64,000 bases of DNA from Glutinoglossum americanum. Its lineage: Eukaryota > Ascomycota > Geoglossomycetes > Geoglossales > Geoglossaceae. The notes below the pieces were generated by a model. That model was not told the origin of the DNA. It saw only the letters and a program-made list of their open reading frames with translations, and ran no database searches. The stretch is from contig JAGHQL010000077.1 of NCBI GenBank assembly GCA_020080175.1, forward strand, positions 53,139 through 117,138. Reading direction: 5' to 3'. Below are positions 20,601-47,100 of the stretch, piece after piece; within the stretch, counting starts at the first letter, position 1; each line of letters starts with the position of its first letter. The translations under genes were made by a program, and so were the position numbers.

Positions 20601-23476
20601 TAACAATTTTGGGTGCCATAAGTCCGAGTAGGTTGAAGGCCATCTCCTGTTGGGAGAACGTTCTAACGCCATACTTTTCCACGCCTTCAGCGACGATGTT
20701 GTTGCCGCCCATTAAACCAGTTCCGCGAGTCCACCCAATGACAGCGCCGCAGATCGTAAGGAAATTGCTCCAGCTCTCTGAATGCCATCTGTTAAACAAT
20801 GTTTCAAGGGCTAGCTTCGACTCCGAATAGAGACCGTCGTTACCGAAAGTCCCATGATTGGGTGATAACGGCAAGACAACTTGGGCAGGGCGAGTTTCGT
20901 AGCCGCGCTCTGCCTTTTGCGTCTTGATGCATCCCAGCAAGCGCAAGAGGTTGGTCAACATGATCCGGTGAGCAAGTTCAGACTTTGAGTCGATGCTATC
21001 AATCTCGCGACCATTCTCAGGGATAGCCGCAAAAGGGATAACGTAGTCAAGATCCCAGCCAAGACCCTTCTTCGAGTCATAGATATACTCGATCAGTGCC
21101 TCAACGTCTTGCTTACTTCCTTGGTTGAACGGAACAACGACAAGCTGGGAACCACTCGAACCGTAGCGAGCGTACATAGCCTGGTAGTACTCGGTGACTT
21201 CACGAGAAAATCTGCTGGTTGTAACAACAACTTTGGCACCGCCGCTAATCAGCCCTTGTAGTACCTCAGCTCCGATAGAACCGGCGCCGGCTCCGGTCAT
21301 GAGTGCATTCTTTCCGAGGAAAGAAACGCCGGATTTTGCGGCCTCTTCCAAACCATCCAAGTATAGTCCGGTCAGCTTCTTACTATATTCCCACCCGTGC
21401 TCTTCCTTTTTCTTCAAGTGAAGAAAAGGGATGGTTTCGACCTTTCCGGGTTTTACTTGACCGTTCACATGACGAAACCCATTCTTCCCTCCCCTCCTAC
21501 CATTTTTAGCCTTGCAATTCTCTGTGGGGATGATTTGCCCCTCATTCATGGCCAATGAACGAATAACATTGTTGTAGAGGCTCTTAATCTGAAGCTGCGA
21601 TGACTTCGACAATTTGTGTTGTTGGCGAATGAGCTTATAGATGCGACTAAGGTCACTTTGGACCTTGGAACGGTTCCCATACTCTGATATTTTCCCTCCA
21701 TCAGCCATCTCTTTTACGTAATGTTCGAGCTTTCTGACCGCTACCCTAGGAACTTCAGCATATTCAAGCTTGCCCCTTGCATCAATAGTCGTTTGGGGTG
21801 CGGTGGGAATGGAAACATCTTTGTAGACAGGCGCTACGCCAAGGACATCCTTGCAGTTTTCAATAAGCTGCTGTCCAAGCACCTTTGCAAGCTGGTATGT
21901 TTCTCCGCGATCGGCAGGACAGTTGTCGATATGATATTGCATAAACTCCAGTAATGTAGGGTTAGATCGGTTCATCATACGGATGCACTGGCTGACAATC
22001 TCCCGGTCAACGGCTTTTAGTCGACCAAAGATGATGTCGTAGTACATGTTGAGGGCATCCTGTCTAACCCAGTTCCAGGAAGAATCGTATACTCTAGCTT
22101 TGAGACTGCTAAAAATTGGTTCAATTCCAGCTGCGTAGAATTCTCCATGCTCCACATTCCACAGGTCAAGCTGTGTTTGCAACGCATTCTGGGTCTCCTG
22201 TGATCCTAAAAATGCCTTGTCGCCCGCTCGGAGGTCCATCTTAAGATATCTAGCAAAAAGCTCGAGTTGTTGCTTAAAGAGAGCTTTCTGGTCCTTTGTC
22301 AGGGCATCGAGCGCCGCTGGATCCATCATCATTCCGCCCCCAGTAGCGCCTCCGTCGCTTCCCGCCACAGGTGCCGACAGGTCCACACCAGCGTTCGCGG
22401 CGTATTTCTTGGCAACGTCATCCAAGAAAGCTTTTGCATCGTTTTCCGCCCCAAGGCGCGCAGCGGGCTCCATTGTGAGCGCCATAAGGAGGACGCCATC
22501 CTGCCGCCCAGGCCCTAGGCCCCACCTTGTCTCTAGATACTTCCTAGCCGTTGTAATATTAAAACCACCGGGCATTTTTGAAGAGATCATTCTCGCCACA
22601 AGTGAAGACGATTGTTTACCGAGTTGTCCGTTGAATGTCGCTTGCATGGAAGCGCCTAGCTCATCTAACGGCGTATCCTCGGGCTTCTCTGGAGTTGAGC
22701 CGAATTCTTTTCCAAGGTCTCCGAGTATTTCATTCTGAAGGGTTGATTTTCCTATGCGTTGCGCAGTTAGAATCGAGGTCATCCTTATTTCATGACGCGG
22801 GGATACTATAACTCACCCCCAACAAGATCCTTTATGGCCTTCGTCAGGGGAATATCCGCAAGTGGCTTCTTCAACTTTTGCGCAATCAGTGATCTTACGA
22901 TATCTGTTGCTGATACGGGGGCATCCGGGACTTGTGCCGCAGGGCCGGAGCTTGGTGCTGTTAGTGCTGAAGCGACAGGAACCGAGGCCATAGCAGGTAC
23001 TGGAGAGGGTGCTGAAGGTTCTGCGCTGGGTGTGGGCTGATCCTCAACTGGGTCAACATCGTAGTATATTTCCTTTGCGTCTTTACTATAGCAAAGAATT
23101 TGTCGCTGAACTGAAAGTGCTGCATCGTAGGCTTCGTATTTTGAGGCAAGTGTCCGCTTGGCCATTACACCAAGTGTGTCCGCCGGACCGATTTCGACGA
23201 TTCTCTCGGTGGTCTTTTCTCCGAGGATAACATCTTGGGTTTCGATCCTGAACACACCAAAGTCAGCGTTGCGCTTCTCAGTCGTTTACCCATATCTGCC
23301 GCAAAGCCGTTGGAAACAGGAACGGATATCTACCATCTCACTGGAGAAGCAAATTGATATCTATAAAGAATTAGCAAGGTACATGTTAAAACTAAGGGGC
23401 TCCACTAGGCTGGCACGTACGCAAGCAGCTCGACAAGGAGCGTGTGGGCGAGCTCTTGCTCAACTTCAGGACGCAT
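17625..23476 (-). CDS. fas2: Fatty acid synthase subunit alpha
   Basis: Alpha chain of the cytosolic type I fungal fatty acid synthase (alpha6-beta6), making long-chain acyl-CoA from acetyl- and malonyl-CoA. Exons are 23476-23421, 23360-23334 (27 nt), 23247-22817, 22751-17788 and 17735-17625, total 5589 nt, 1862 aa, normal for the family. The order is an N-terminal malonyl/palmitoyl transferase fragment, the acyl-carrier domain with phosphopantetheine Ser at about 174 (GKST), ketoreductase (near residues 650-900), ketosynthase with active Cys at about 1279 ([10 protein letters not shown]) and His motifs [10 protein letters not shown] and [12 protein letters not shown], and a C-terminal phosphopantetheinyl transferase (VGVDVEAI). 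The carrier-domain codon before the modified Ser is interrupted by an intron. An Ala/Pro-rich linker lies at about residues 100-140. It is divergent from fas1 and probably co-regulated with it. Confidence 0.97.
23334..23360 (-). other. fas2: 27 nt internal micro-exon of fas2
   Basis: The residues YQFASPVRW are encoded across a 27 nt exon bounded by TTTATAG upstream and GTAGAT downstream. Without it the frame does not connect [18 protein letters not shown] to [10 protein letters not shown], and both flanks are strongly conserved in fungal alpha subunits. Confidence 0.85.
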
Positions 23477-24430: not shown

Positions 24431-27400
24431 ATGTACGGCCAACCGCAAAATGGACATCAGACGGGAGTGTCTACTCCCCGATCCTCTGCCTCTCTTCGAC
24501 CTCTTGTCATTACCCACGGCTCTCTAGAGCATTCTCTCTTGATTCCGACCTCATTACATTTTCACGCTTCCCAGCTCAAAGATGGGCTCCTAGCAACGTT
24601 TCCTCCTCCCACGGATGAACTAGCCCAGGACGATGAACCTTCATCTGTACCTGAGCTCGTCGCTCGCTACCTTGGATACATTGTTGATGAGGTGGAGGAT
24701 GGGGAAGATGATGCTCAAGGATCGTATGCTGAGGTCCTAAAGCTTGTTTTAAACGAGTTCGAGAGAGCGTTTCTCCGAGGGAACGAGGTGCATGCCGTCG
24801 CAGCCTCGTTACCTGGTATTGTCCAGAAAAAGATTGCGGTTATCAAGGCATACTACGCTGCTCGTTTCTCCGTCAACCGCCCCATCAGACCTCACGAATC
24901 CGCCTTGTTTAGAGCAGCTGCTGACGGCAATGCACGAATTTTTGCAATATTTGGTGGACAAGGCAATATTGAGGAGTATTTCGACGAGCTCCGTGAGGTA
25001 TACACGACATATCCCGGGTTTATTGAGAAGTTTATTGCTTCCTCCGCGGATCTTTTGCAATCACTTGCTAGAGACCATAGAGCAGAGAAGCTCTACCCAC
25101 ATGGCCTGAATGTCATGCGATGGCTACAAAACAAGGACTCTCAGCCGGATACTGATTATCTCGTCTCGGCACCCGTCAGCCTTCCGCTCATTGGGCTCGT
25201 GCAACTCGCACACTATGCAGTCACTTGCCATGTCCTTGGAACAACTCCCGGTAAAGTCCGGGAGCGCCTCAGTGGAACCACTGGTCATTCTCAGGGTATC
25301 GTCACAGCGGCTGCAATTGCGGCCGCAGATTCTTGGGAATCGTTTAACAAAGTTTCAAGAACTGCGCTCACAACACTTTTTTGGATTGGATCTCGTAGCC
25401 AACAGACATACCCTCGCACCTCACTAGCTCCGTCTGTTTTACAGGACTCCGTTGACAATGGCGAGGGGGTCCCAACGCCAATGCTAAGCATCCGAGACCT
25501 CCCCCAGTCGGCCGTACAGGAACACGTCGATGCAACAAACCACCACCTTCCGGAGGATAGACACATTCAGATATCTTTGGTCAACAGTGCTCGTAACGTG
25601 GTTGTAACAGGACCTCCGATTTCTCTTTACGGTCTCAATTTAAGACTCCGTAAGGTCAAAGCGCCAACGGGCCTCGACCAGACTCGTATTCCCTTCACAG
25701 AGCGCAAAATTCGCTTTGTCAACCGATTTCTCCCTATCACTGCACCATTCCACAGCCCGTATCTCGCCGAAGCCTACGGAAACATCGAAGAGGATCTCAC
25801 CAATGTCAAGATTCTGGGCAAAGATCTTGGCATTCCAGTCTTTGGCACGCTTGATGGAAAGGACCTCCGAGAAGAGGGGAGTAAGAATGTGGTCCCTATC
25901 CTTGTCCGGATGATCACACATGATCCCGTTCACTGGGAGCGAGCGACTACCTTCCCGAATGCAACTCACATTTTGGACTTCGGACCCGGTGGAATCTCGG
26001 GTCTTGGCGTTCTCACACAACGAAACAAGGACGGTACTGGTGTTCGTATCATCCTCGCTGGAGATATGGAAGGCACAAACGCGGTGGTTGGATATAAGCC
26101 AGAGCTATTTGACCGTGATGAAGAACATGCCATCAAATACGCCATTGACTGGGTCAAGGAATTTGGCCCACGCCTTGTGAAAACCTCGGCTGGGCGCACC
26201 TATGTTGACACAAAGATGAGCAGACTTTTGGGAGTCCCTCCAGTCATGGTTGCTGGCATGACCCCTTGCACCGTTCCTTGGGATTTTGTCGCAGCCGTAA
26301 TGAACGCAGGATACCACATCGAGCTTGCCGGGGGTGGGTATTACAATGCAAAGACTATGACCGAAGCTGTCAGCAAGATTGAAAAGACTATTACTCCGGG
26401 ACGCGGCATTACTTGCAATCTCATCTACGTCAACCCCCGCGCCATGGCCTGGCAAGTGCCTCTCATTGCACAACTGCGTGCCGAGGGCATGCCCATTGAA
26501 GGAATGACAATCGGCGCCGGGGTCCCGTCTATAGAGGTTGCGAACGAGTATATCGAGACACTTGGAATAAAGCATATTGCCTTCAAGCCAGGGTCTATTG
26601 ATGCCATTCATCAGGTCATCAACATCGCTAAAGCCAATCCAACATTCCCAGTCATTCTCCAATGGACCGGTGGGCGAGGAGGAGGCCATCACTCTTTCGA
26701 GGATTTTCACCAGCCAATTCTGCAGATGTATGGCCGAATAAGGAGGTGCAGCAATATTATCCTTGTCGCCGGTAGCGGGTTTGGCGGTGCCGATGATACA
26801 TACCCTTATCTCACCGGCAAGTGGGCTGAAAAGTATCGATACCCGCCTATGCCTTTCGATGGTATCCTTTTTGGTAGCCGCATGATGACAGCTAAAGAAG
26901 CCCACACCAGCAAAAATGCAAAGAAGGCAATCGTTGACGCGGAAGGTCTCGACGACAGCCAATGGGAAAAAACATATAAGGGCCCGGCAGGTGGGGTCAT
27001 CACTGTGCGATCCGAAATGGGGGAGCCAATCCACAAGCTTGCAACAAGAGGCGTCAAATTCTGGGCGGAGATGGACCAGAAAATTTTCAGCTTAGATAAG
27101 GCGAAGCGACTCCCCGAGTTAAAAAAGCACCGTGAATATATTATTAGGAAACTAAATGATGACTTCCAGAAAGTTTGGTTCGGGAGGGACTCAGCCGGCG
27201 AGTCAGTGGACCTCGAAGATATGACTTACGCTGAAGTTGTTCGGAGAATGGTTGATCTAATGTATATCAAACACGAAAACCGCTGGATTGATAAATCTTT
27301 GGTACGGCTCACTGGCGACTTCATACGCCGGGTTGAGGAACGCTTCACCCTTTCGGGGGGTAGGCCTTCATTGCTACAGAATTATTCTGAACTCGACAAC

Positions 27401-30400
27401 CCTTACCCAGCAGTTGAGAAAATATTGAAGGCATACCCCGAGTCGGAGCAACAGCTCATCAATGCACAAGATGTACAACACTTCCTCCTCCTCTGCCAGA
27501 GGCGTGGCCAGAAGCCAGTCCCGTTTGTGCCATCTCTGGACGAGAACTTTGAATTCTGGTTCAAAAAAGACTCTCTATGGCAGTCCGAAGACCTTGAAGC
27601 CGTTGTTGACCAAGACGTTGGAAGAACTTGCATCCTCCAAGGGCCAATGGCTGTCAGGTATTCCAAGGTTGTTGACGAGCCTGCTAAGGATATTCTGGAT
27701 GGCGTGCATGAGTCTCACATTCAGCTCCTAAAAACGGACGTCTATGGAGGTCAGGAGACGGCGATTCCAGTTGTGGAGTACTTCGGCGGAAAGCTTATTG
27801 AGCGTGACGTTGACGAACTCGATGTCGAAGGCCTGACAACTTCCGAAGATAAAGATAAACTCACTTATAGACTCTCTTCTTCGGCTGGTGCGGACCTCCC
27901 GGACCAAGAATCATGGTTCGCTCTGCTCGCAGGCAAGGATTACTCTTGGAGATATGCGTTGTTCACCACAGATGCGTTTGTGCAGGGCCAGAAATTCCAA
28001 ACTAATCCCATTAGGAGGGTCTTCACCCCTACTCCTGGTTTGGTAGTGGAGATAACGCATCCAAATGATCCGAGGAAGACCACTATCACAGCCAAGGAGC
28101 AGTCACACTCTGGGGCGAAATATGTAAAGGTCATTGAAATAAAGTCTACTAGCGAAGGCGAGATCACTGTCAATTTGCTGGAAGAGAGAACTGTCGAGGG
28201 TAAGGCGGTGGCCTTGCCTTTGAAGTTCACATACCATCCGGAAGTCGGCTCTGCCCCAATTCGGGAGGTTATGGAGGGCCGAAATGACCGGATTAAGGAG
28301 TTCTACTATCGTATTTGGTTCGGCAATGAAAGGGTGCCATTGGATGCTTCTGCCACGGACCGTTTTGAAGGCGGCAGGACGACAGTCACGAGCAAGGCAA
28401 TTGCGGACTTCGTCCACGCGGTCGGAAACACAGGTGAAGCTTTCGTCGAGCGCCCTGGAAAAGAGGTCTATGCACCTATGGATTTCGCGATAGTTGTTGG
28501 GTGGAAAGCTATTATCAAGCCAATCTTCCCGAAGGTTATTGATGGCGATCTTTTAAAACTCGTTCATCTTTCTAATGGATTCCGAATGATTCCTGGTGCC
28601 GAGCCTTTGAAAAAAGGCGACGTGCTTGACACCACTGCTCAGATCAACGCTGTGATTAACCAAGATTCAGGGAAGATGGTTGAGGTCTGCGGTACGATCA
28701 CCAGAGAGGGCCGGCCTGTAATGGAGGTGACTAGTCAATTCCTATACCGTGGCACTTACACCGATTTTGAAAATACCTTCCAACGGAAGGCTGAAACCCC
28801 AATGCAGCTGCATCTTGGATCAGCAAAGGACGTAGCTGTTCTCAGATCGAAGGAGTGGTTCTGTCTAGATGATCCCGAAACTGAGCTTCTCCACAAGACC
28901 TTAACATTCCGTCTAACAAGCCTTGTTCGATTCAAAAACAAAACTGTTTTCAGTAGTGTGCAAACGCTAGGTCAAGTGCTCCTAGAGCTCCCTACGAAAG
29001 AAATTATTCAGGTGGCTTTCGTTGAGTACCAGGCGGGTACCTCTAACGGAAACCCGGTTATTGACTACCTTCAGCGATACGGTTCTTCCATTGAACAGCC
29101 AGTCAACTTCGAGAATGCTATTCCTTTGAGTGGAAAAACCCCTTTGATCCTAAAGGCACCTGCCACCAATGAAACCTACGCTCGCGTTTCCGGTGATTAT
29201 AATCCCATTCACGTCTCACGTGTCTTTTCTAGCTACGTCGATCTTAGAGGCACCATCACTCACGGCATGTATACCAGCGCCTCGGTGCGTAGTCTCGTCG
29301 AGACTTGGGCCGCTGAGAACAACATCGGGCGGGTACGAAGCTTCCACTGCTCTCTCGTCGGCATGGTACTTCCCAATGACGTTATCGAAGTGAAGCTTCA
29401 ACATGTCGGTATGGTTGCTGGAAGGAAGATCATCAAAGTCGAGGCCATAAATAGGGACACCGAGGATAAGCTGCTTCTGGGTGAGGCCGAGGTTGAGCAA
29501 CCCATCTCCGCCTATGTCTTCACCGGCCAAGGTAGCCAGGAACAAGGGATGGGTATGGAACTTTATGCGAGTAGCGAGGTTGCTAGGGAAGTCTGGGACA
29601 GGGCTGACAAGCACTTTATGGATAATTATGGTAGGTGATTCTGGCAACACTACTAGTTTCTCAACTAACATTTCTCCAGGCTTCGCTATCACCAATATTG
29701 TAAAGAACAACCCGAAGGAGCTTACAATCCATTTCGGGGGTCCACGCGGAAAGGCCATTCGGCAAAATTACATGTCTATGACCTTTGAGACTGTTGGTGT
29801 TGATGGCAGCATCAAATCAGAGAAAATCTTCAAAGAGGTCAATGAAAACACCGATTCTTATACCTATCTGTCACCAACCGGACTACTCTCCGCTACTCAG
29901 TTCACGCAACCAGCTTTGACCTTGATGGAAAAGGCCAGTTTTGAGGACATGCGCGCCAAGGGGCTTGTGCAGAGGGATAGCACATTCGCAGGTCATTCTC
30001 TTGGAGAGTATTCTGCACTCGCTGCACTTGCTGAGGTCATGCCTATTGAGAGCTTGGTATCTGTCGTCTTCTACAGAGGCCTCACCATGCAAGTTGCTGT
30101 GGAGCGTGATGAAACCGGACGATCCAACTACTCTATGTGTGCCGTCAATCCCAGCAGAATTTCAAAGAGTATGTTCAAACCCTATTCCGAAACTTGAGTG
30201 GATGACGCGCTAACTTTGAAATAGCCTTCAATGAACAGGCTCTCCAATATGTTGTTGAGAACATCGCTGAGGAGACTAAGTGGCTTTTGGAAATCGTCAA
30301 TTACAACATTGCGAATATGCAATACGTCTGCGCTGGAGATCTGCGAGCCCTCGATTGCCTAACCAATGTTACCAATTACCTCAAAGTCCAGAAGGTCGAT

Positions 30401-30875
30401 ATTCAAGCCTTGACGCAAACCATGTCTCTCGACGACGTCAAAGCTCACTTAGTGGAGATTATCCGCGAGTGTGCCAAGCAAACTGAGGCCAAGCCAAAGC
30501 CTCTAGACCTGCAGCGTGGCTTTGCTACTATCCCACTAAAAGGGATCGATGTCCCATTCCACTCTACCTTCTTGCGGTCAGGTGTCAAGCCGTTCCGTAG
30601 TTTCTTGCTGAAGAAAATCGACAAGAATACCATCGACCCGAGCAAGCTGATTGGGAAATATGTCCCTAACGTCACCGCCAAACCCTTCCAGCTTACAAAG
30701 GAATACTTCGAAGATGTCTATCGTCTTACCAACTCCCCAAGGATTGCCAACGTGTTAGCTAATGTAGGTTAACCCCATCAAATCAGCTTCTCTGGGCACG
30801 ATCGCGCTAACGACTTTTTAGTGGGACAAATACGAAGAACCCAAGACCGAAACCGTGAAGGCGCAAGCCTTATGA
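24431..30875 (+). CDS. fas1: Fatty acid synthase subunit beta
   Basis: Beta chain of the fungal fatty acid synthase. Exons are 24431-29630, 29680-30168, 30225-30763 and 30822-30875, total 6282 nt, 2093 aa, a normal length. The order is acetyltransferase with Ser at about 287 (TGHSQGIV), flavin enoyl reductase ([31 protein letters not shown]), dehydratase with the hot-dog motif [13 protein letters not shown], and malonyl/palmitoyl transferase with Ser at about 1840 ([11 protein letters not shown]). The three introns lie close to the 3' end. The last exon codes for only 17 residues (from WDKYEE). The start ATG directly follows the divergent promoter and gives the expected N-terminus. The pairing with full-length fas2 and housekeeping neighbours indicates the primary-metabolism synthase and not a toxin-cluster copy. 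Confidence 0.97.
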
Positions 30876-33740: not shown

Positions 33741-34929
33741 GGCAGTATGGTTTGGGAGTAGCTTTTGCACTTCAGGCCCTTTGAAATACCAAATCATTCT
33801 TTTATGAATTGAAACGTGTTACGATATTACCAGCCCGTACTCAAGTTTCGAAAGTCTTGTTTCCCTCTTCGATATGACTTCACCTGGAGTGTTGCGAAGT
33901 TAGACATGTCTCCCTGCTGGGCACTTACAGGAGTTCTGGCCTTTTGTGCTTTCCTTCAAACTTCAACGCCAGCACTGTCTAATGGATTGATTACTCTCTG
34001 CTCAAGACTACACCAAGTGACCCCACCCCCCAGCGACGCAGAACTTTCTAGAGTACTGCAAGAGGACCTCCTCATAGAGACCTCTTAACGGAGCGTTGGC
34101 AGATTAAGTTACCTTTTATACCTGGAAACTGAAGGCACTTCTTTCTTTTCTTCCTAGAGTGGATGGAGTGCAAGAGAACGTTCCAGACATGTATACGTGT
34201 GTTCTTCCCAAGTTTATCTCGCTCTAGCTAGAGATTTTAGGGTAGGTAGTTCAATGAAAGCACGAGTCTTTTGCCGTTGAGAAAAAGAGATATGTGTGGC
34301 TTCCAGGATGGCGGCTGACAAGCCGTGAACTGCGATACAATCAACGATTATTTCTAGATTACGGAGGCACAACCCGCGTTCCAAGTAGTATGATCATTTT
34401 CATTTCCATACCCAATCTGCGAAATACAGCCGATACCAGGATCCCCATTCCCAACCGGATTTTCTTAGCTGAGGGAGTGAGAATGGTGTTTGTCAGCAAA
34501 TCCCGTTGGCTCAATAATAACCACCAACGCCAGCCAAAGAAAATTCGCCCCTGACACCGCCGTCATTATAGCTAGTGCCTAATTCCCGCCAACTGCAAAG
34601 TGAATGTGCGCTTACGCAGCAATCACTATTATTTCATCTTGTTTGCTGGAGGATCAGGTCATTTACGTCATGTCACGTCACATCCACGACCGTCGTCTTT
34701 TTTTTTTTCGAGCGTTTGCCGCTGGTTGGTATTTTTTTTCCTTCGAGCATATATTCCGGCCGCAAAACGCGGATGGATGCCGAAATATGGAGGAAGAAGG
34801 GGTGGGTCGTCCGGTTGGGCTGGTTGGTTGGGGTTCGAGAATAAGCCCGGGATCGCCCTTATCATTTCCGAGGGCCAATCGCACCTCGCACACACTCTCC
34901 ACCATCCGTTCATTCCCCTCCCCCGCGCT

Positions 34930-35160
34930 CGAACTTCCCCCCAAAAAAAAAACAATTTTTTTTTTTTTTTTTTATAAAACACACCCAACACAGTTTTTCG
35001 GACCCCAAAATAAAAAAAAAAGTTGGGCGAGGCAAAAAAAATAAAAATAAAAATAAAAAAACCCCTTCAAGGGAAATTGGAGTTTATCTTACTTTTTCCT
35101 TCTTTTTTTTTTTGAGAATGACGAAACAAATTTTATTTAAATTTCTCCAAATTTTTTTAA
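34930..35160. repeat. Homopolymer-rich low-complexity block
   Basis: Successive A-runs and T-runs, including an A-run passing directly into CAA and a roughly 20 nt T-run near 34950-34972, then A-rich stretches with (AAAAAT) units near 35030-35060. Either genuine low-complexity DNA or unreliable sequence. Confidence 0.7.
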
Positions 35161-36096
35161 TTTCAAAAGGGGGGGAGTGTCCCGTGATGCGAAGGGGACC
35201 CGGGGACTTGGGATTGGGATTTTTGGGGGAAATTTTTCTTAGCCCGTCGCGCTATCCCCATGCGCGGTAGCTAGTGTATATGTGTGCGTGTGTGTGTGTG
35301 CAGAGAAGGGAGAGGAGAAGAAGAAAAAAAAAACTGGGGTGTTCTGTCCTATGGGCTTTTTTATTATTTTTTATTTTTATTTTTTCTGGCTTCATCGACT
35401 CATCTAGACAAGAGAGATTATTAACTTTGTGGTTCTATGGCTAACCCTCTACTTTTCTTTTTCTCTCCCTCTCGCGCATAGTTTGAAATGCTTTTTACTA
35501 AACAGAGTCGTCGTCATTATTATTGTTGCTACACCTATAATACCTCCTCGTTCTTCTCCCGCGGTATGGGTGAGGCACGGATCGCACCCCAACCAGTGCG
35601 CACACAAGAAGAGATCTTTCTTTCCTTTTTTCCCCCTAATTTACCCACACTCTGGAAGATAATCAGATGGTTGCCTTGGGAAAAAATTGCGCTCGGGGGA
35701 ATTCTCGCGGACTTCACACCACAATTTTATTTATCGGTTTCTTGGCTCGTCATCTTATCGTCCGATCGGCAGAAAAGCGTAGAAGCCGATTTTCAGGAGA
35801 TTGGCAGGAAAATCTCTCTCTCCGCCTGAAGAGCCATTGTGCGCTAGTGGTCCTCCTGGGTCAAAACCCGCATAGCCGAAAACGCCTGCTGCAGCTGAAA
35901 GACAGCTCTCTTTGCTTTTCTCAAATTCCTTTTTCTGCCTTCGTTCGTGGTGGATTGGATGCCCGAAGAACGGGAAAATGGGCGCTCACCTTCCTTGCTT
36001 GGTCGTCCCCCGTGCAGAATAACCGAAACAGACGGGCTTCCCATTCGCATTGCGGCTCATCAGCGTATTTTACCTGCAACAGGAAGGCCATGACTA

Positions 36097-36154
36097 GCTG
36101 GCTAGGTTGCTGGCTAGGTTGCTGGTCAGGTTGCTGGTCAGGTTGCTGGCTAGG
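36097..36154. repeat. 12-bp minisatellite, about 4.8 copies
   Basis: Tandem copies of GCTGGCTAGGTT; the third and fourth copies read GCTGGTCAGGTT. Read on the minus strand the unit would code for a repeating Asn-Leu-Ala/Thr-Ser, but the frame has no other support. Confidence 0.85.
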
Positions 36155-38718
36155 CTAGGTACTTCTTCTTGTTTGGAGGAAAGGACCCCGACCAGGCAAA
36201 AAAGAAAAGAGAAGGCTTTGCGAATCGTAGAAGGCTTAGCCAAACTTGGTTGTGTGTGCATAACCAGCTCAGATACCTGACCAAAAGTTAGGTAGCATAG
36301 GGAAAGCATTGTTGCCCAAATCGGATCCCTCACATTCGGGGACGTGCGGTGTCAGGCTACATTCAAACGATTGGGTTGGGTCGGTGTTCGTGTGGTTGTT
36401 TGAGGGCAGCAAAACTATTATCAAACACACCAAGGGAGGAGGGAAGTAAAACTCTCTTGCTGTGTAGTTTTTCTTGTCTTACGGGATGGATACACGCGCA
36501 CTCTAATACTCCAGAGGATCCTGTGCGTTGCACAATGCTCGGTGCGTAGCTTTATACCCTTCCTGACTAACTTCTGGCGCCCTCCCAGAGCCATGGGCTG
36601 GCTCCTCTCGCTACAATACCTACGGGGTGGTAAGTGTGTCGTACGTCACGTCGCGGCTGGTTTAGAATAATATCATTGCATAACTGGCCTCCGGGATCGA
36701 TAGGTTTAATCGGAGGCACGAAAGCAAGTTTGTGCTGCGATCGACTTTTCCCTTCCCCATCGGTTCGCAAGTGTGTTCTCTGTGTGGGGGTGCACAGCAT
36801 GAACCAGTTTGCTGGTTGTTAATCTTGCATACGATTTTGCTTTTACCCGACGGTTTGGGTGGGCCAAACCATGGCAAATGAACATTCCAGCGTTATTCCA
36901 CCGGCCCTTGGCCCGCCCGGGATGCACCGCCTAATTTTGCCAGCTCGCAAGTCCCCATCGAATGACGGCCACTAACTGAGGCCCCGATCCCTCGTTTTTT
37001 TTGTTACGAGGGAAATGGCCCACGTCGCTTGTTTTCTTCTGCGTCATCGCCGCCCCTTTGCTGTCCTTTGCTTCTGTTGCCCTGGAATGGAGAACGGGAG
37101 GGGTCGTTGTTGGTCTTCTCGTCTATCGATGGACCGATCTGTGCCTGACTTTTTGATTGCATCTTGCACGCCTCACTTCCTGTTACCTGGCGGCCTGCTT
37201 GCTTGAAAGGCCAGCTCCCTACAAAAAACGAAAAGGAAACTCGAAAGGAAAGTAAAGGGTCATGTCAACATGCGACTGGCCGCGCCATGGCAAAAGCAAA
37301 AAAGAAAAAAAAGAAAAGAAGAGCTGGGTAGGGCGATCCGAATCTGTTGGCTTCCCTTCTCCCAATCCCAAAACGAGCCGCGCGCAAATCAAGGAAAAGA
37401 ACAGCGGCGACTGGAGACACCAAGCCCACGCATCAAAGTTCTAAAGGGAACGCGGCGTCTCGGCACTACCCACCCAATACCGGCTGGCCGGAAGGGGATC
37501 CAGTAACTCTAACTGACACCATCCCGACTAGTTTCACAATGGCATCGGGCGACGGCTGGAATGGGGTGGGCCGTTGACTTTGACTATTGCGTGGCAAAAA
37601 GCAAGGGCGAGGCGCAGAGCACACACCCAGCTGCTGTTGTCCACTAGTCCCAATTCCCCGTACCTGACTTGCACACTACGTTGAGCATTGTAAATCACAT
37701 CTATATTGCACTGTGATACGGAGAAGAGTCCGAAGTAGAGCTGAGCTGTTTTTTCTGCTCTAAGCTCTTGAGGTTGAGCAGAATGGAACGCCAATTGAGG
37801 AGTGGGCCTTCTGATCTTGCCTGGGCTGGAGTGATAAAGTTGCTGCTGGTATCTCCAGAAATCGAGAATGGTAGAATAGTTTCTGCGTCCCGCTCGCCCT
37901 GTATTGTTTAGCTTAGCTTGCCTCCGCCTCTTTTTGCAGCCTTCCCTTAAAAGTGAGAGAAAGAGAAACAGTAACGCACACGACACCTGCCAAGCTAGGC
38001 CCAACCCGGGGGAAATGCGGACCAGGGGGGTTTGGCGTGTATAAGGTCCTTCGACCTTCACACATTCATTTCCCAGCGGACGCGGGCGTGTCAAACTTCG
38101 ATTGCTGCCAGCAACCTGCAGCCCGACAGGAAAGAAGAAAATATGGAGAAAAACAAAGGAAAGGGTGAACCGGAGTGGGATGTAACCGTCTACGTAAGTT
38201 AGGGTTTCGTCTTCTGTCAGGTCCCAGGTTTCGGAGGCACGTTTGCTGGGCGGGCTGGGTGTATATGTGTCTACCCATCACAGTCCCGGGACGGGGATCC
38301 TATCTAATTTTAACCTCCTTTGCGATTGCCCCAAACAGAAATTTCTTATTCTTTGGCTCTCAACTTAATTGCCTGTTTGGGATAGGTGCGCGTCGAGACT
38401 CCGGCTTGAAATGTGTCCGGGAAGGGGAGAGTAATAGCGACACTCCGGATGGGTGCGGTTCCTAACGGCTTTTATAAAGCTGAAGGACTTCCCACACACA
38501 TGCACACGGACACCCACGCAGCAACTCACGACCCACTTCACGCTGCCAAAGACACGATACGCGCTGATCCGCTATATATCGTTCTCTGGTGACCGTTTTC
38601 TCCTCGGAATTATTCTCTGTCAGCCTCAGATAACTCATTTCGACCGAGAACGGGTACTTCCACCGCAAAACGCCACCGCATTTTAAATCTCACCCTAACC
38701 AACGCCACAGCACCACCA

Positions 38719-38726
38719 TATAAAAA
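38719..38726 (+). promoter_or_regulatory. Putative TATA box of the small Cys-rich gene
   Basis: A TATAAAAA sequence lies 448 nt upstream of the ATG at 39167. It is followed by a CT-rich stretch (38757-38775), as in many fungal promoters. If used, the leader would be about 400 nt. This is inference from sequence alone. Confidence 0.45.
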
Positions 38727-39166
38727 GCTTTACTTGGTGCCGGCGGAGACCAGAGGGCTCTCTCACCTCTCACGCATACGACACATTAACACACTTCGTT
38801 ATCCACCAGAAAGGAAAGACAAAAACAGGGGAAAACAAACCTAGACGACTACACAGTTCGCAAACACAAACAACGCATACATCCTCTGTCCATCCCACGA
38901 GGCCGAAAACTACCCCTCGGCCTAAAATATTAAAAGGTAACAAATCCCTTCCGTCTATTCGCCCAAGGTGTACTCAATTCCTTCCAAATCCCCACAACCA
39001 ATAAAGCAAGTATCGAGTTGATATCCCCCTTCACAGAAATGTATACGCTAACACACATGGGCACCACTATAGACGAGGGAGAGAATTGAGAGACCGGAGA
39101 GAAGGCAGGGAGGGTGAAAGAAAAAAACCAAAGCAAAAGAGGGAAAGAGGAAGAGGAGAACGAGAA

Positions 39167-39331
39167 ATGGCGATCCCGGGCTATTGCCATCACTCGTTCA
39201 AGCTCATCAAAAGTGAAACGACGCTGCTACTTTGGAACTGTGGCATGTGTCACTCGGGCCCTCACTGGTTCATCTTCGAATGCAAGTTCTGCAAGCTCAA
39301 GACCTGCCGTCCTTGCACCTACAATGCCTGA
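39167..39331 (+). CDS. 54-residue Cys-rich protein with three CxxC knuckles
   Basis: A small intact frame of 54 residues. Cysteines fall at 7, 25, 28, 39, 42, 47 and 50 with His at 8, 9, 29 and 33. The pattern is CGMC-x10-CKFC-x4-CRPC with a conserved-looking SGPHWFIFEC core, typical of a zinc-binding treble-clef or DC1-like fold. About 40 of 54 codons end in G or C, all four Phe are TTC and four of five Lys are AAG, as in well-expressed fungal genes. The surrounding kilobases show no such bias. No signal peptide or membrane segment is present, so it is probably intracellular. The ATG follows about 100 nt of almost pure purine sequence. I do not know its function. It could also be an upstream frame of a longer transcript, but nothing larger follows. 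Confidence 0.7.
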   Translation: MAIPGYCHHSFKLIKSETTLLLWNCGMCHSGPHWFIFECKFCKLKTCRPCTYNA

Positions 39332-40575
39332 AGAAATGCTACCATCCTTTCACCCCTCGTCCATTTCGGTTTAGGTTTCGGGTGCGCCTTTTTTTTTTTT
39401 CTCTTAATCTGAGGTGTTTTCCCCGGGGCGGACAAAATTCGACTATCTTCCTATGATTACGTTTTTCCCGGATCTGATCGATGTTGGGAATAGGCGGTGC
39501 TGACAGATGCAGGGGTTGCTGGGAGGGAATTGTCATATGAAAACGGGTGGATTTGCCTTTTTACTTTCCTGCTCCGGGACCCTGGTACTTTGCTGAATGT
39601 TTCCGATCCGATGACAGTGTCATTCTTTTTTTTTGTGTTCCTCAATCATTCGGCAAGGGGAGGAAAGGAAGGGGGAAGGGATGGTTGTTTGGATGGGACG
39701 AAGGGTGTTGCAGTTGAGGCATTAGGTGGAGTTTGTCTCATCCGCCCCCGGGGAACCGTGGTATGAATGGATAACGGGGATCTGGACGCAAGGGCGACAG
39801 AAAGCAGTTCCAGCTGCTTAGCGATAGCAACAACGACCCTGTCTCGTCGGTTCTTGGCCTTGTCTTATTGCGCGGCTCTTTTCATTTCCTCTCTTTGCTG
39901 AGTCGGAGGTTGCCCTTTTTCATTTCCTGCTTCAAACTTTCTTTGACAAGGTCCGGAGGGTGTTATTTCCAAGATACAGGTGCTTCAGTTGGGAGGGGCT
40001 CTTGGGAGGTTTCGTTCTCCATCGCCAACCTACAGATTTCGGCAACTCAACTACAGACTTAGACTGGGGAAGGGCGGTACTCGTGTTTTGATTCTCTTGC
40101 GCCTGCGATAACGACTTCACGAAACGAACAAAGGATAAGGAGTAGATGGACTTTTTTTTTTTTTTTGCGTGTGAGGGAGGGGATTGGTTTATACAGCTTT
40201 TGTTCGCGAGAACATAAACAAAACCCAAAAAGATCCAGAGTCAAAAAATACTCGTTCCCTGGGCGTAAAAAAAAAATCAAAAAATATAAGCTCGACCGAA
40301 CAAGCTGCGTTGCCTCGCGTGCTTATTTTCCCACTTGGTGTAACGAGTGCCAGCGACTGTATCTGATGACCTAATCGATGAAGGATGTGTTGCTTGGGCT
40401 CTTGTCTGAGGAGCGCAGCCGAACCGAAGCCCTGGGCCGGCAATGACGTGGAAAGCTGGGATATGCGGGATGCGCCTTTTTTTTTTTTTTTCTTCTCTCC
40501 CCTTCCCGCCGTTTCGGGCAGAACATGCATACATGTCATGCCGTGCAAGCGCGCAAGAAAAGAAGGGCGCCAGGC

Positions 40576-40616
40576 GAGTAAGGTAAGGTGGAGTAAGGTA
40601 AGGTGGAGTAAGGTAG
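40576..40616. repeat. 15-bp tandem repeat, about 2.7 copies
   Basis: Copies of GAGTAAGGTAAGGTG begin at 40576, 40591 and 40606; the third is partial. Confidence 0.85.
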
Positions 40617-40911
40617 GAATAAGGTGTGAGGTGCAAGGTGGTACGGTAGTTGTCCTGGTTCCGGAGAAACGGGAATGGGAGGGGTTGAAGGGAGGGGAGA
40701 GAGAGGGAGCACAACTGGGATCCGTAGGCGGGTACGAATGTAAGTGAGACCACGTTGATCAAAGGTGGCTGTGTAAGTTTTTTTGGGTTCTGTCACGACC
40801 GTTCCATCTCCATTCCCTCTGGCATCCTTCGGGTCATCTTCTGGCGACGGGTGACGTGGAGAGTTCATATGCGACTGTCTCAATCTTCGGGTTTTGGGTA
40901 TATGTCTTGTT

Positions 40912-40936
40912 TCAAGTCAAGTCAAGTCAAGTTCAA
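40912..40936. repeat. (TCAAG)n pentanucleotide microsatellite
   Basis: Four perfect TCAAG units followed by an imperfect TTCAAG. Confidence 0.85.
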
Positions 40937-40952
40937 GGGGTGAGAGGTGGGA

Positions 40953-40981
40953 AGGGTAAGGGTAAGGGTAAGGGTAAGGGG
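40953..40981. repeat. (GGGTAA)n hexanucleotide repeat
   Basis: About 4.5 units of AGGGTA. The unit differs from the fungal telomere hexamer TTAGGG and is not a rotation or complement of it. Its G-runs could form a four-stranded structure. Confidence 0.85.
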
Positions 40982-41881
40982 CGAGGAAGGCCGGGGGAGA
41001 AATGTGATAGATAAGATAAGATTTGCCCTTCTTTTTGAAAAAAAAAAAAGTCAAGGGAGGAGAAAAAAGAAAAAGAGAAAACAATACGAGCGATGGTTAT
41101 TATTTATAGCGGTGATAATAACAAAGGGATCCTTCGGGCGATTTTTGAGTTATTATTCTAAATTATTCAGCAGGCGGTACGTGCATTCTTCGCTCATCCC
41201 TGGCCGGCTTGAACCTCACAGAAGCTTACTTGAACATTAATAATTTACCCGCCCGTTGATTTCCAACCCACCGAGGTGCTTCGATCTCCGAAACCGGGTA
41301 TTGCTGTCACCGAAGGGAGGAGCGGCAGACACAGAGAGAGGCAGGGAGAGGGAGGCGATGGGAGAAGGCGATTTTGCGGGGGAATTGGACCGAGCCGAGG
41401 ATTATAGCATGATATTGCCGTTATCGCTATGGGTCGTCGTTATTACATACGGAGAGCTCCGCACGTATACAAATCACACAATCCTCCACGCCCCGTCGAG
41501 AATCCCCAAAAAGAAAAATCGGGACACTCAGGAATCCCATTCGGATTTGTCCGTCTTCGACAGCCAGCCGGGATCCCGCTCCCCATTCCTGCCCTCGTCC
41601 TCCCATCCTTCCCTGCGGACCGACCGACTGGGGAGAGAGGCCCAGGACACGGGGAAAGAAAGAGAGAAGAGAAAAAAAAAGAAAAAAAAAGAGGAAGGGA
41701 GGACAACATTCTCACGGGCAAATAGGGAAATAGGGAGGGCAACGAGCAACTCCACTCCACCACCGCCAACTCTGCAACGGAGCATGTAATCGTCGGTCAG
41801 CAGCAGCAAGCCACAAAGCGGGCCTTCCAACCGGCCCTCGTATTTCGGCAGCCCTAACCAAAGGGGTACGCATAACTCCGC

Positions 41882-41910
41882 GAGAGGCTGGAGAGGCTGG
41901 AGAGGCTGGA
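41882..41910. repeat. 10-bp tandem repeat, about 3 copies
   Basis: Three near-perfect copies of GAGAGGCTGG. Confidence 0.8.
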
Positions 41911-42769
41911 CCCGAGTGTTCGTAGCGGCGTAGCCGGGGGGGAGATTCGGGAGATTGATTCATCCTCACCCAACCCTCCCTTATCGCCATCCCCGAGAAC
42001 GTTCGAGAACAAAAAAACGCCCAGAAGCAACTCAAACACCACCCCAGGAAAAAGGGGCCCACACCCACGTAACCGTGCCAACCCTCCATCTCCATTCCAA
42101 ATTCCAATTCCAATTCCAAATTCCAAACGCATGCCTATTCCACCGCCCCGCATAATCTACGAGGGTTTTCTCCCAAGCACACCGGCGCTTCCGATCCTTT
42201 TTAGCTCTTTGAACTCTAATCTGCGCGGAGGAATAACATCCTTACCCCGGGCCTCTTTTCTTTCTCCATGGGGCAATAGAGCCGTGGTTGTTTTGTGTTT
42301 TGGCAAAGCGAAAGAAAACAAAAAGGGTATTCGTGTGCGGTGCAGACGCAGGCGGGAAGCGAAAGGGAGGAAGAGGGTTTTTCTGGAGAATCCCTGGGAA
42401 CCCTGGTTTTTCCGTTCCAGCGGGAGGGCCCGGAGGGGGGTCCTTGATGGTTCGGTTTGACGGGTTTTTTCTTCTTCTTTCTGGCGTTTCTTTTTTTTTC
42501 TCCTCCTTATCGGATCGGTTGCTTGTGATGGGGATTTCTCTGGTTCGAGGGAACTTCTCGACTAACTATCCCCGCGGAAGGTGGGATGGAAAAATGCCAA
42601 AAAAGAATAATAATAATAATGATAAAAAGACCATATACACCAAAAAAAAACCGAAAAGACTCAAAAACCTAAAAAAATTAAACAAAAAAATCCCTCCATC
42701 CCTCTCTGCCGACATGTCATATTTCCTCCTCCCTCTCCCTGAAACAGCACTCCCTCACGACACCCTCAC

Positions 42770-42830
42770 AGTTTTTTTTTTTTTTTTTTAAAAAAAAAAA
42801 CCCCCCAAAACCCCCCCCTCCCCCTTCACC
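42770..42830. repeat. T-run / A-run / C-run junction
   Basis: A run of about 20 T passes directly into about 10 A and then into several C-runs separated by AAAA. Very similar junctions occur near 61715-61765 and, shorter, at 43730 and 62115. Confidence 0.8.
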
Positions 42831-43247
42831 CTGGCGACACCGGCCCAACCCACCTCCCCGAACCCGGGGATAGAACTACCCGAAAGAGAACGCGCGAAAA
42901 AAAAATCCCCAAAAAAAAAAAACCAAATCACACACACACGTCAAAAAAAAAGTGAGATATATGACGACGTCCGGGGCACTCTATCGCAAACGCAGGGCTG
43001 GCCCCAGACGGCGGGAAGGGGTGGAGAAGGGGATGAAAGAAAAAAAAAAAAAAAAAAAAACACCCGAGCGGGCCCCCTACCTCCCAGGAGAGAGGCACGA
43101 GCGCCAGACGTGCGTACGTACGTACGTTTGCCCCCCCCCTCGGTACTCTCTTTTCCCTCCCCCCCTCCTTCAAAAAAAAAAAAAATAAACCAAAAAACAA
43201 AAACAAAAAACCAAAAACACCAGACGCTGTTATTTCTATTCTACCCA

Positions 43248-43292
43248 TTCTTATTCTTATTCTTATTTTTATTTATTCTTATTCTTATTTTT
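43248..43292. repeat. (TTATTC)n hexanucleotide tract
   Basis: Imperfect tandem TTATTC/TTATTT units over about 45 bp. Confidence 0.8.
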
Positions 43293-44131
43293 CGCAGGAT
43301 ATGTACACACACAATACAATACACGTACGTATCGATCGAGGCGGGGGGTTAAAAACAAAAAAAACAAAAAAAAAAAAAAAAAATAAAAAAACCCCAACAA
43401 CAACAACAACAACAACAATATCCGAAAATTGGGGGGGGGGGAATTGGGGATTGGGGATTGGGGATTTGGGGGGGTTAGGCGGCGGGAGGAGTCGGTCGGT
43501 TGGTCGGTAGCGGGAGGGAAGGGGAAGGGGGACGGGTCGGATCGGCGCGTCATGTATGGTGTATGGTGTGGGTGTGGTGGGGTCTTTGGAAAAAAAAAAA
43601 AAAGGTTTTGTTTTTATTTTAATTTGTTAAATTTTAAAAATTTTTTAAAATTTCCATGTCCCGGTTTTATGTCTTGTCCCGGGGGATTCCGGAAATCTGC
43701 CCCATTTTTATTCAAGAAAAAAAAAACAATTTTTTTTTTTTTTTAAAATAGGGTGCTTTTTGAAGGTTTTGGAAAAGCCTGTGAGGATATGATGAATATT
43801 CCCGGCTTTATTTAGGTGGTAGATATGTGTGGTGGGTGTGGCTCTTTTGAAAGCGATAGAGAGAGAGAAAGAGAAAGTGAAAGTGGGGGAAACCTTTGTT
43901 TTGTCTCTTGAGAATTGGACGCTACGTTGTTTTTATATCTTGATCGCGAGGAAGAAAAGCAAAAAAAGGGTATAGGGACGACGTGGCGTGATAATGGAAT
44001 GAATGGGTCCCTATGGCCTTGTCTTCCGGGTGTTCGAGGAGTATCGAGAGGGTGTTCCCCATCCACCCACCTCAGCCATGGTGACATGTAGCCTGTAACC
44101 TGTAACCTGCCCCTCTATCGAAGAAATATCT

Positions 44132-47100
44132 CTACTCATTCCGGATTCGGTTTTGTGACTCCTCCTGCGCCGTTTTCTCTGACAGATTGACCGCCAAGAA
44201 GCTCTTTGGTAGTTTGACCCTACCACCAGAAAGTCATCAGCCAACTTGAAAACGGGATGGAGCATATATATATATATCCATGGGCAAATGTGGAAAGTAA
44301 ATGTAAGAAACAAACGCCACCACTCACCGCTGGAAGTTATCCCTCAGCGTTTCGATAACCTCTTTCCAATCTAGGTGTGGCGTTAAACTCCTCCTCGGGG
44401 CGCAGCCGATGCAATGCTTCGAGTCCAACTGCAGGTCTAACGGATCGAACGTGTGACACCCCGGAGAGATCGAGATCCGGATGCTGTAGGCAAATGTATT
44501 CGGTTCCTCCGGCCCAGCGTCAGCGGGGGTTTTGTTCTCGGATTCGTAGAGCTCAAAGCAGATCTGAGACAGATAGTCGAGCTCGGGGATGGCGGAGCGC
44601 TCAATCTTGGTCTGAATACCGCCCTCGACGATACAGTTTAGGAGAGTGTAGATGTGTGATTCTTTTGTAAAGTAGACGAAGGATTTGGCGTTGTCGGAAG
44701 CTTGGACGTATTCGAGATCCTTCACGATTTCTTTCAGGAGCGGGAGGGATGTCAGCAAGCCGATCTCGAGCTTTTCGTCGTTGGTGATGCCGTATTCTTG
44801 CGGTCCGACGAAATCGAATAGCACCTTGGCCAACTTGTACAGCTCACGAAGCTTCTCCAACCGGATATCCATCTTAGCTTTGGCGTGAACGCTGCCTGTG
44901 AATAGGTTGAAGTAAGACTGCTGAGTTTTTAGGTGGGCGCTCGGTCGTCGTGTCGTCGACGGGACGCGGTTCGATAGTCTTCCGAAACGTCCCTTCTGGC
45001 CGTCGGCACTTGTGGCTTTTGCGGAGTTTTCGGGTTTCCCTGGGTTCTCGGACCTGACGTCGGCCGGTGGGTGCGGCTTGGAGTCCTCCTTCCTCGTATC
45101 CGGTTGGGATGTGGGGGCTATGCCCTTATCCGTCCCGGTGGTAGCGGAACACGCATCTTCGTCGAGCACGGTGGAATCCGGCGTGAAGATAGTCTCTAGG
45201 AATTGGCGATTGTGGAGCGCGTCGTATTTCATGGTGTCGTACAGTTCAGAGATTTTGCTAGGGTCGACTTTGTCAGTGTCACAAAACTCGACAAAGAGCT
45301 TCTCCCAGCGCTCCCGGAAGAGCTCAGCATCTTCTCCACAACACCAACGAGCTTGGATCGAAGAGACGGCCTGCGCTTGAGCGATGACAGACAAAGATGG
45401 AGGAGCAGCTGGCGATTGGTTGCGTGGATTAGCTATAGCAGCTAGTGAAGACGTCGCCACACCACCAAACAGGCGGGTGTAGTTGTGACGCATTACTCGC
45501 CGATGAAACTTCATGAGTTCAACCACGTTACCGAGGACGACTGATGGCTCCGGCGTGCCCTTGGGCCAAGCGAATTGAGGTGCAGCCTCCATGCCTTCTC
45601 GCAAAAGGGACTTGAGTTTCTTCTTGACACGGTCCATTTCGTCCTTGGCAGCGTTAGAGTCGTCGAGGAGATCTTTTCGAACCACCAGAAAATCGTCTGG
45701 GATATCGGTTCGGTTCGTAAACGATGTAGCCCATATCTGGGCTGCTTAGAGTCTTAGCACGACGGCTGGGGGGAAGTTCGGGCAAGGGAATTGATAGGGA
45801 CTCACCGCTGGTACTGACCCTCCGCTCTGAGCTTGTGTAGATGGATACATCGTCGAGAACGCTCCGGTTCATCAAGAGCATGTCGTTTCTCATGTTCTCT
45901 CCAAGGTCCTGGCTCTGGTATCTAGCGGAGTGAGTCGGTTCGCCTCCCCATTTGATGATGAGTTGCAATTTGTCTAGTATCAAGTTGTTCTCAGCTGCGG
46001 CTATGCGCGAAAGCGTGACTCCAGTGAGAGAATCGCTCCTTGTGGGTGGCCGTGAAATGCTGAGAAGACCCTCTCCTTCTGAACTTCGTATCGGTGGAGA
46101 CGCCATGGCGGCCGAGCTTGTCACTACCTCTGCAGGGGGCCCCTCTGCGGACTCCCCTTCTGCTGGTTCTGGTATGAAACCCATGGCCATTTCATCTGGC
46201 TTTCTCTTCCGGAATAGTGGTTTAATCTGCACTTTTGTTCCTGGCCAACCTCCCTTTCGCGCGAGAGAAGTTCTCAACAGCTTGAGCTTCGATAGGTCTT
46301 CGATCCCCTCCTTTAGAGCCACCTTCACTGCCTCCATGACGCTGTCTAGCGCGGTTTCCCCAACCAATAGTACCTCTTCTTGATGTCCCTTTAAGAGGTC
46401 GATGAACGGCTTAGTGTGGAACGTAAATTTGAATTTCTGCTTTGGGGTGCGGTCGGCGTGCCTAATTACCGCGACCATCCCCTTCAGCTTCCAAGAGTGC
46501 TTGGGTTCTGGTGGCGGTGGAACACTAGCAGCTGTCTCATCTATATTTGGAGACGGATTTGAGCTTCTTGGCGTATCCGCTGTGGGAGTAGACGAAGGTG
46601 ATGGGCGTAGATTCGCATCGGAACTCGTAGAGGCCGCGGGTCCTCGGGGAGCGGAAGTACGACCAAAACTTGGCGGGGAGCTTATTGGTGCAGTGGAGGT
46701 CAAAAGATCTGGTAATGTCCCATCCCCTATTTGACCATGACCAGCGCCGGAGTTGTGGTGATGGTGGCGGTAGTTTGAAAGCCTTGTAATGCTGGGAGAC
46801 CTACCCAGTAGTGTCTGCAGCGCTGACCTATGGCCCCCAGTGCTCTTCCAGCTCTGTCGACCGTTGGAGCCAATTTCCATTTCGGCGCTGGTTTCAACGA
46901 CAGGCGGCATGACCGCCTTTCCCTCTCTCCGCTCTTTCTCTTGTATAAACATCTTCCGCAGGATATTTGCACACTTGTCGTAGTATTCGTTGTTATCCTT
47001 GACGAAGCTCCAGCCGTTGACATCGATAACATAGCTCTTGCCATCAACTCGAAGGAGATCAAATCCACACACTCTCTGGCCAAATGCTTCTGCGATCCGG

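What the first reader, a model, noticed from the sequence alone, without database searches (positions are those of the whole stretch)
39167..39331. A small zinc-knuckle-like protein gene alone in a 10 kb gene-poor zone
The sequence shows an intact 54-codon frame with seven cysteines in a regular CxxC-x10-CxxC-x4-CxxC layout, four histidines and GC-ending codons in about three quarters of positions, unlike its surroundings. A TATA-like box lies 448 nt upstream. That a tiny gene occupies a zone with 5.4 kb before it and 4.8 kb after it suggests elaborate regulation or a regulatory transcript. The function is unknown to me; zinc binding is inferred from the cysteine spacing.
Basis: partly seen in the sequence, partly recalled or inferred. 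Interest (0 to 1): 0.75.

Follow-up and report, generated by a model that had tools for sequence, protein, structure and literature searches.

The report
Tiny conserved fungal zinc-binding protein
A 54-residue, probably zinc-binding protein without any assigned function is conserved across many filamentous fungi and looks like a stand-alone version of a module that larger signalling proteins normally carry as one part.

Summary
Window 39167-39331(+) encodes an intact 54-aa protein and is a real gene: three searches found 112 database homologues, in six looked-up classes of Pezizomycotina, and pN/pS is about 0.2 against two other copies. The same genome holds an intact 58-aa paralogue, a 667-aa protein with two domain copies, and a broken copy.

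It is not a zinc knuckle (0 of 88). No listed Pfam match passes its cut-off; C1_2 is the commonest weak one (23 of 88). A deeper AlphaFold model (pLDDT 78.7) resembles C1 domains (Munc13-1 C1 first, Foldseek E 0.028, TM 0.60); a shallower one did not.

Best reading: a free-standing C1-like two-zinc module whose eighth ligand moved from the C-terminus to C7, probably a small adaptor using two conserved loops. Function is untested. Special regulation by the gene-poor zone is unsupported.

The parts
39167..39331 (+). 54-aa C1-like zinc-protein gene (coding sequence with stop)
   Evidence: intact frame; homologues; pN/pS 0.19-0.21
   Evidence: C7 in 87 of 88 rows, H9 in 86 of 88; both kept in the two P0010 domains
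39239..39250 (+). codons of C25-x2-C28, first CxxC
   Evidence: 87 and 88 of 88 rows
39281..39292 (+). codons of C39-x2-C42, second CxxC
   Evidence: 87 and 88 of 88 rows
39305..39316 (+). codons of C47-x2-C50, third CxxC
   Evidence: 85 and 83 of 88 rows
39209..39223 (+). codons of loop KSETT (residues 15-19), conserved KS[DE][TSN]T
   Evidence: K15 88 of 88, S16 84, D or E at 17 82, T/S/N at 18 88, T19 73
39251..39271 (+). codons of loop HSGPHWF (residues 29-35)
   Evidence: H29 73, S30 76, G31 83, P32 82, H33 73, W34 64 of 88
38719..38727 (+). TATA-like stretch TATAAAAAG, candidate promoter element
   Evidence: read from sequence; no transcript data
38937..39072 (+). candidate leader intron (GTAACA ... 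CTAAC ... TAG)
   Evidence: splice signals read by eye; it would remove both upstream ATGs found between 38700 and the start codon (39039 and 39057); untested
33741..44323 (.). gene-poor zone around the gene
   Evidence: neighbours; no strong coding stretch by codon score, but that score also misses the 54-aa gene itself

Best explanation
The ORF encodes a real protein that is one bare zinc-binding domain. Shown: intact frame, conservation at about 54 aa across Pezizomycotina, purifying selection. Well supported but not measured: eight ligands, hence two zinc ions. Inferred: C25/C28 with C47/C50 hold one zinc and C7/H9 with C39/C42 hold the other, in a cross-brace of the C1 kind; the last ligand, which C1 domains carry near their C-terminus, is supplied here by N-terminal C7. 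Inferred and least certain: it is a small intracellular adaptor whose two conserved loops, KS[DE][TSN]T and HSGPHW plus an aromatic, sit where C1 domains form their ligand groove and bind a conserved partner, most likely a protein or peptide, less likely a membrane lipid.
Confidence: 0.55

Rival explanations
1. A ZZ- or RING-like cross-brace finger rather than a C1-like one: the CxxC-CxxC-CxxC core is ZZ-like and the fourth ligand pair sits at the N-terminus. It would read a peptide tail or take part in ubiquitin transfer.
For: hhalign against the ZZ domain of L033: prob 55%, E 1.2e-4; prob 42%, 0 of 60 Cys-fixed shuffles as good. P0010 has a below-cut-off match to PF25080 zf_RING-like, 24.2 bits against 27.
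Against: Three other ZZ pieces read in frame (L034, L035, L040) are at chance, 30, 31 and 34 of 60; the ZZ-like spacing is in 0 of 88 rows; PF00569 is not among the Pfam matches of the 88; the deeper model's fold matches shown are C1-type or TFIIH.
Confidence: 0.2
2. A RanBP2/NZF-type ribbon (residues 23-42) with an extra CxxC, binding ubiquitin or single-stranded RNA.
For: W-x-C-x2-C-x10-C-x2-C spacing in 85 of 88 rows; some UniRef automatic names say RanBP2-type; the best PDB sequence matches of profile A6 are TAB2 NZF fingers, E 0.18.
Against: The motif's Asn is present in only 1 of 88 rows, mostly Pro instead; PF00641 matches 1 of 88, E 0.038; it leaves four conserved ligands unexplained.
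Confidence: 0.1
3. A domesticated transposon-derived zinc module.
For: Several copies in the genome, one broken; weak hits to gag_pre-integrs (2 of 88) and a MuDR DNA-binding domain (3 of 88).
Against: Those hits are sub-cut-off where bits were listed; around L002 and L004 nothing beyond the coding match resembles 36501-42500 of the window except one 27-base weak match.
Confidence: 0.04
4. A non-coding or regulatory transcript whose 54-codon frame is accidental.
For: ORFs of this length are common in the zone by chance; codon scoring does not mark it as coding.
Against: Start, length and ligands conserved across classes; pN/pS about 0.2.
Confidence: 0.01

Closest known systems
C1 domain superfamily (Pfam C1_1 PF00130, C1_2/DC1 PF03107; RAF cysteine-rich domain; TFIIH p44/Ssl1 C1-like PF07975)
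   Same: H-x-F start, CxxC, CxxC, then a third ligand pair, about 50 residues; predicted fold overlays residues 9-54 on 231-276 of PKC delta C1B, 1ptq; weak C1_2 match over residues 7-51 of P0046
   Different: 54-aa protein with nothing else attached; third pair CxxC instead of HxxC; C-terminal Cys absent and C7 present instead; second loop shorter; below Pfam cut-offs
PiggyMac cysteine-rich domain (PDB 6ZOP, PMC8086355; passages seen)
   Same: C1-like circularly permuted two-zinc cross-brace; N-terminal ligand shares a zinc with the second CxxC
   Different: His-Cys2-His plus Cys4 ligands, part of a large transposase; fourth ligand is C-terminal; no sequence relation tested
ZZ zinc finger (PF00569)
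   Same: CxxC-CxxC-CxxC core; best outside hhalign score
   Different: five rather than four residues before the third pair; other ligand pair C-terminal (His pair, recalled); no Pfam match in 88 rows
PF25080 zf_RING-like
   Same: L014 of the same genome shows CxxC-x11-CxxC-x4-CxxC
   Different: fourth pair is a C-terminal CPVC; similarity to the family at chance, 13 of 60 shuffles as good

Membership tests
C1 domain (PF00130 / PF03107) | score over the Pfam cut-off | tested here: not met
   C1_2 best 21.7 bits against 26, C1_1 best listed 16.9 against 26.5; 23 and 2 of 88 rows at E <= 0.1
C1 domain (PF00130 / PF03107) | ligand pattern HX12CX2CX13-14CX2CX4HX2CX7C (recalled) | tested here: not met
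   0 of 88 rows
C1 domain (PF00130 / PF03107) | C1 fold (permuted two-zinc treble clef) | tested here: inconclusive
C1 domain (PF00130 / PF03107) | diacylglycerol, phorbol ester or phosphatidylserine binding | not testable with these tools
   needs protein
Zinc knuckle (CCHC) | CX2CX4HX4C (recalled) | tested here: not met
   0 of 88 rows
RanBP2/NZF zinc finger (PF00641) | W-X-C-X2-4-C-X3-N-X6-C-X2-C (recalled) | tested here: not met
   1 of 88 rows; spacing without the Asn 85 of 88
ZZ zinc finger (PF00569) | CX2C ... CX2C-X5-CX2C spacing (recalled) | tested here: not met
   0 of 88 rows; no PF00569 match; hhalign to one ZZ of the genome 0 of 60 shuffles, three others at chance
zf-UBP (PF02148) | Pfam match and downstream His ligands (recalled) | tested here: not met
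   no PF02148 match in 88 rows; the 54-aa chain ends four residues after C50
PF25080 zf_RING-like | score over the cut-off of 27 bits | tested here: not met
   no match among the 88 rows; the distant relative P0010 has 24.2 bits

The most novel reading that the evidence does not exclude
A Pezizomycotina-wide, free-standing C1-type module of about 54 residues, with a zinc ligand re-sited from the C-terminus to the N-terminus, acts as a soluble sensor or competitor for a C1-type ligand (a lipid or a small GTPase) and so tunes a signalling pathway of filamentous growth or development. Domain-only regulators of this kind would be a new use of the C1 fold.
Probability: 0.15. Interest if true: 0.7.

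Novelty: new variant of a known kind. Interest (0 to 1): 0.45.

Why it matters
A protein this small is easily skipped or mis-joined by gene finders, yet it is kept across classes that include Neurospora crassa, a laboratory fungus in which its function can be tested directly. If the C1-like reading is right, it is a minimal stand-alone form of a fold known from large signalling proteins, and shows how a two-zinc cross-brace can move a ligand from one end of the chain to the other.

Tried and rejected
Zinc knuckle: rejected, 0 of 88. Chance frame: rejected. Rfam over the window: 0 matches at gathering score; tRNA scan: 0. NCBIfam for P0001, P0009, P0010: none at E <= 1. Codon scoring trained on five window ORFs does not mark the target as coding (-5 bits); its unusual amino acids swamp the score, so I rely on pN/pS. 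PDB sequence searches: no match better than E 0.93, 0.34 and 0.18 for three queries. Pfam RIM2a_ZnF matches 17 of 88 rows weakly over a dozen to eighteen residues where shown: not pursued. First AlphaFold model (A4, 49 rows): no useful fold match. zf-UBP was an early guess from the CxH-CxxC-CxxC-C order; dropped. An alignment of own-genome zf-UBP pieces (A8) was made and not used. Viral contigs: 5 pattern matches, none a relative. Prokaryote genome contigs: 33 pattern matches, 1 relative, L032, filed as a deltaproteobacterial MAG but fungal-looking. Among the names listed I recognised no Eurotiomycete, yeast or basidiomycete; the search is word-based and small genes are often unannotated, so that absence is weak. 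Transposon origin: see rivals. Two further weak, stop-containing own-genome matches (L009 E 0.08; L013 E 0.0045) were not followed.

Literature: searches for Pfam names (0 papers), locus tags (0 papers), small conserved Pezizomycotina proteins, small ORFs in filamentous fungi, Pezizomycotina-specific genes and C1 domains gave no title or abstract start that is about this family; only those listings were seen, plus passages of PMC8086355.

Full report
WHAT IS THERE. It lies between a PRPP-synthetase-like gene ending at 33740 and a Vip1/PPIP5K-like gene (RimK-like ATP-grasp plus histidine phosphatase domains) whose last clear frame starts at 44324. No other strong coding stretch was seen between them, but the codon score used also fails to mark the 54-aa gene (-5 bits), so small genes could be missed. 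Length alone is no evidence: 44 ATG-ORFs of this size or more occur in the zone, against a mean of 32 in 400 resamples. The cysteine pattern is evidence: 0 of 400 resamples had it.

IT IS A REAL, CONSERVED GENE. Protein searches gave 7 homologues of 7 candidates, then 60 of 108 and 105 of 309 with profiles, at E <= 0.001, 1 and 1: 112 distinct database entries (clusters at 90% identity). The nearest, from Kalaharituber pfeilii (Pezizomycetes), is 94% identical. The seven taxa looked up fall in six classes: Pezizomycetes, Orbiliomycetes, Lichinomycetes, Dothideomycetes, Sordariomycetes and Leotiomycetes. Neurospora crassa, Fusarium and Zymoseptoria are among the names listed. Where NCBI names them they are hypothetical, uncharacterized or unnamed; a few UniRef names are automatic domain guesses (RanBP2-type, Phorbol-ester/DAG-type). 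No listed row carries a precomputed Pfam domain. The window copy differs from L032 by 12, 9 and 32 bases at codon positions 1, 2 and 3. pN/pS is 0.21 (bootstrap 0.12-0.33) for window-L032, 0.19 (0.09-0.33) for window-L002 and 0.30 (0.18-0.45) for L002-L032. As a control, the other two forward frames of window-L032 give 1.49 and 1.08; of the reverse frames two give 1.63 and 2.99 and one is also low, 0.27. Synonymous sites are near saturation (pS 0.81-0.91), so the ratios are rough and probably overstate dN/dS.

RELATIVES IN THE SAME GENOME. The window lies in a 25.8-Mb assembly, G000. P0001 matches itself and three other places at E <= 0.001: L002 (58-aa intact frame, 73% over residues 7-51), L003 and L004. 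L003 is a 667-aa frame, P0010, with two copies of the domain. Domain 1 is a sure relative (hhalign E 5.7e-13, 0 of 60 Cys-fixed shuffles as good); domain 2 is less sure (4 of 60). L004 is a broken copy: the frame shifts and part of the domain is missing, with 87% DNA identity over 63 bases.

LIGANDS. Alignment A6 holds P0001 and 87 of the 112 homologues. I left out 25 long, truncated, partial or mis-joined models; several of those lack ligands as modelled (for example P0007, P0045, P0059, P0060, P0092, P0109). In A6 eight positions behave as ligands: C7 87, H9 86, C25 87, C28 88, C39 87, C42 88, C47 85, C50 83 of 88 rows. 78 of 88 rows have all eight; of the 10 others, 6 lack one or both of C47 and C50, where some models look wrongly spliced, and 4 lack another ligand. 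H8 varies freely; H29 and H33 are kept in 73 rows each but replaceable. C7 and H9 persist in both P0010 domains. Other near-constant residues: K15 (88), W23 (87), E38 (86), F11, S16 and I36 (84 each), G31 (83), P32 (82).

HOW IT WOULD WORK. In PiggyMac, a solved C1-like domain, the N-terminal His shares a zinc with the second CxxC and the last ligand (passages of PMC8086355); I recall the same for C1 domains. Here only four residues follow C50, while C7 is nearly invariant two residues before H9. The simplest reading is that C7 stands in for the missing C-terminal ligand and CxxC for HxxC. The most conserved non-ligand stretches, KS[DE][TSN]T (15-19) and HSGPHW (29-34), lie where C1 domains form their ligand groove (recalled; positions from the alignment, not measured in the model). 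The second loop is shorter than in typical C1 domains and the strict C1 pattern is in 0 of 88 rows, so ordinary diacylglycerol binding is unlikely. I think a small protein- or peptide-binding adaptor most likely and a lipid sensor less so; both are inference.

THE GENE-POOR ZONE. Its size is real, but special regulation does not follow. The one other genomic copy that I could read from another fungus has open frames within 1 kb on both sides and a TATA-like stretch about 100 nt before the ATG; it may be a paralogue. The window leader holds a candidate intron, 38937-39072, with the only two upstream ATGs between 38700 and the start codon (for the ATGs; splice signals read by eye), which would leave a clean leader; untested.

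NOVELTY. P0001 has no Pfam or NCBIfam match, no match over a cut-off was seen in the family members whose bits were listed, and the literature searches named under Tried and rejected listed no paper about it. I rate it a new variant of a known kind: an uncharacterised, class-spanning family of stand-alone, probably C1-like zinc proteins.

Noticed in passing
window 17779-22782 (-) and 24431-30772 (+): Divergent fatty acid synthase alpha- and beta-subunit genes side by side.
   Followed up: no
window 15903-17393 (+): Frame with a diacylglycerol kinase catalytic domain match (PF00781, E 7.5e-10); about 22 kb from the gene studied.
   Followed up: no
window 58213-60702 (+): Hybrid histidine kinase with HisKA, HATPase_c and response-regulator domains.
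   Followed up: no
window 38143-38196 (+): Short open stretch from an ATG running into a GTAAGT-like splice donor, possibly an upstream alternative first exon; read by eye.
   Followed up: no
L032 (NYXK01000048.1): Contig filed as a deltaproteobacterial MAG carries a fungal-type gene, probably contamination; two frames starting with the same 20 bases (ATG at 2093 and 3302) flank the small gene.
   Followed up: partly
L003 796-2799: 667-aa protein P0010 with two copies of the domain and a basic RAKRRRV stretch before them; single-frame gene of unknown function.
   Followed up: partly
gene models P0007, P0092, P0096, P0105 and similar: Several database models diverge after residues 46-50, as if an intron near the C-terminus is mis-annotated.
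   Followed up: no
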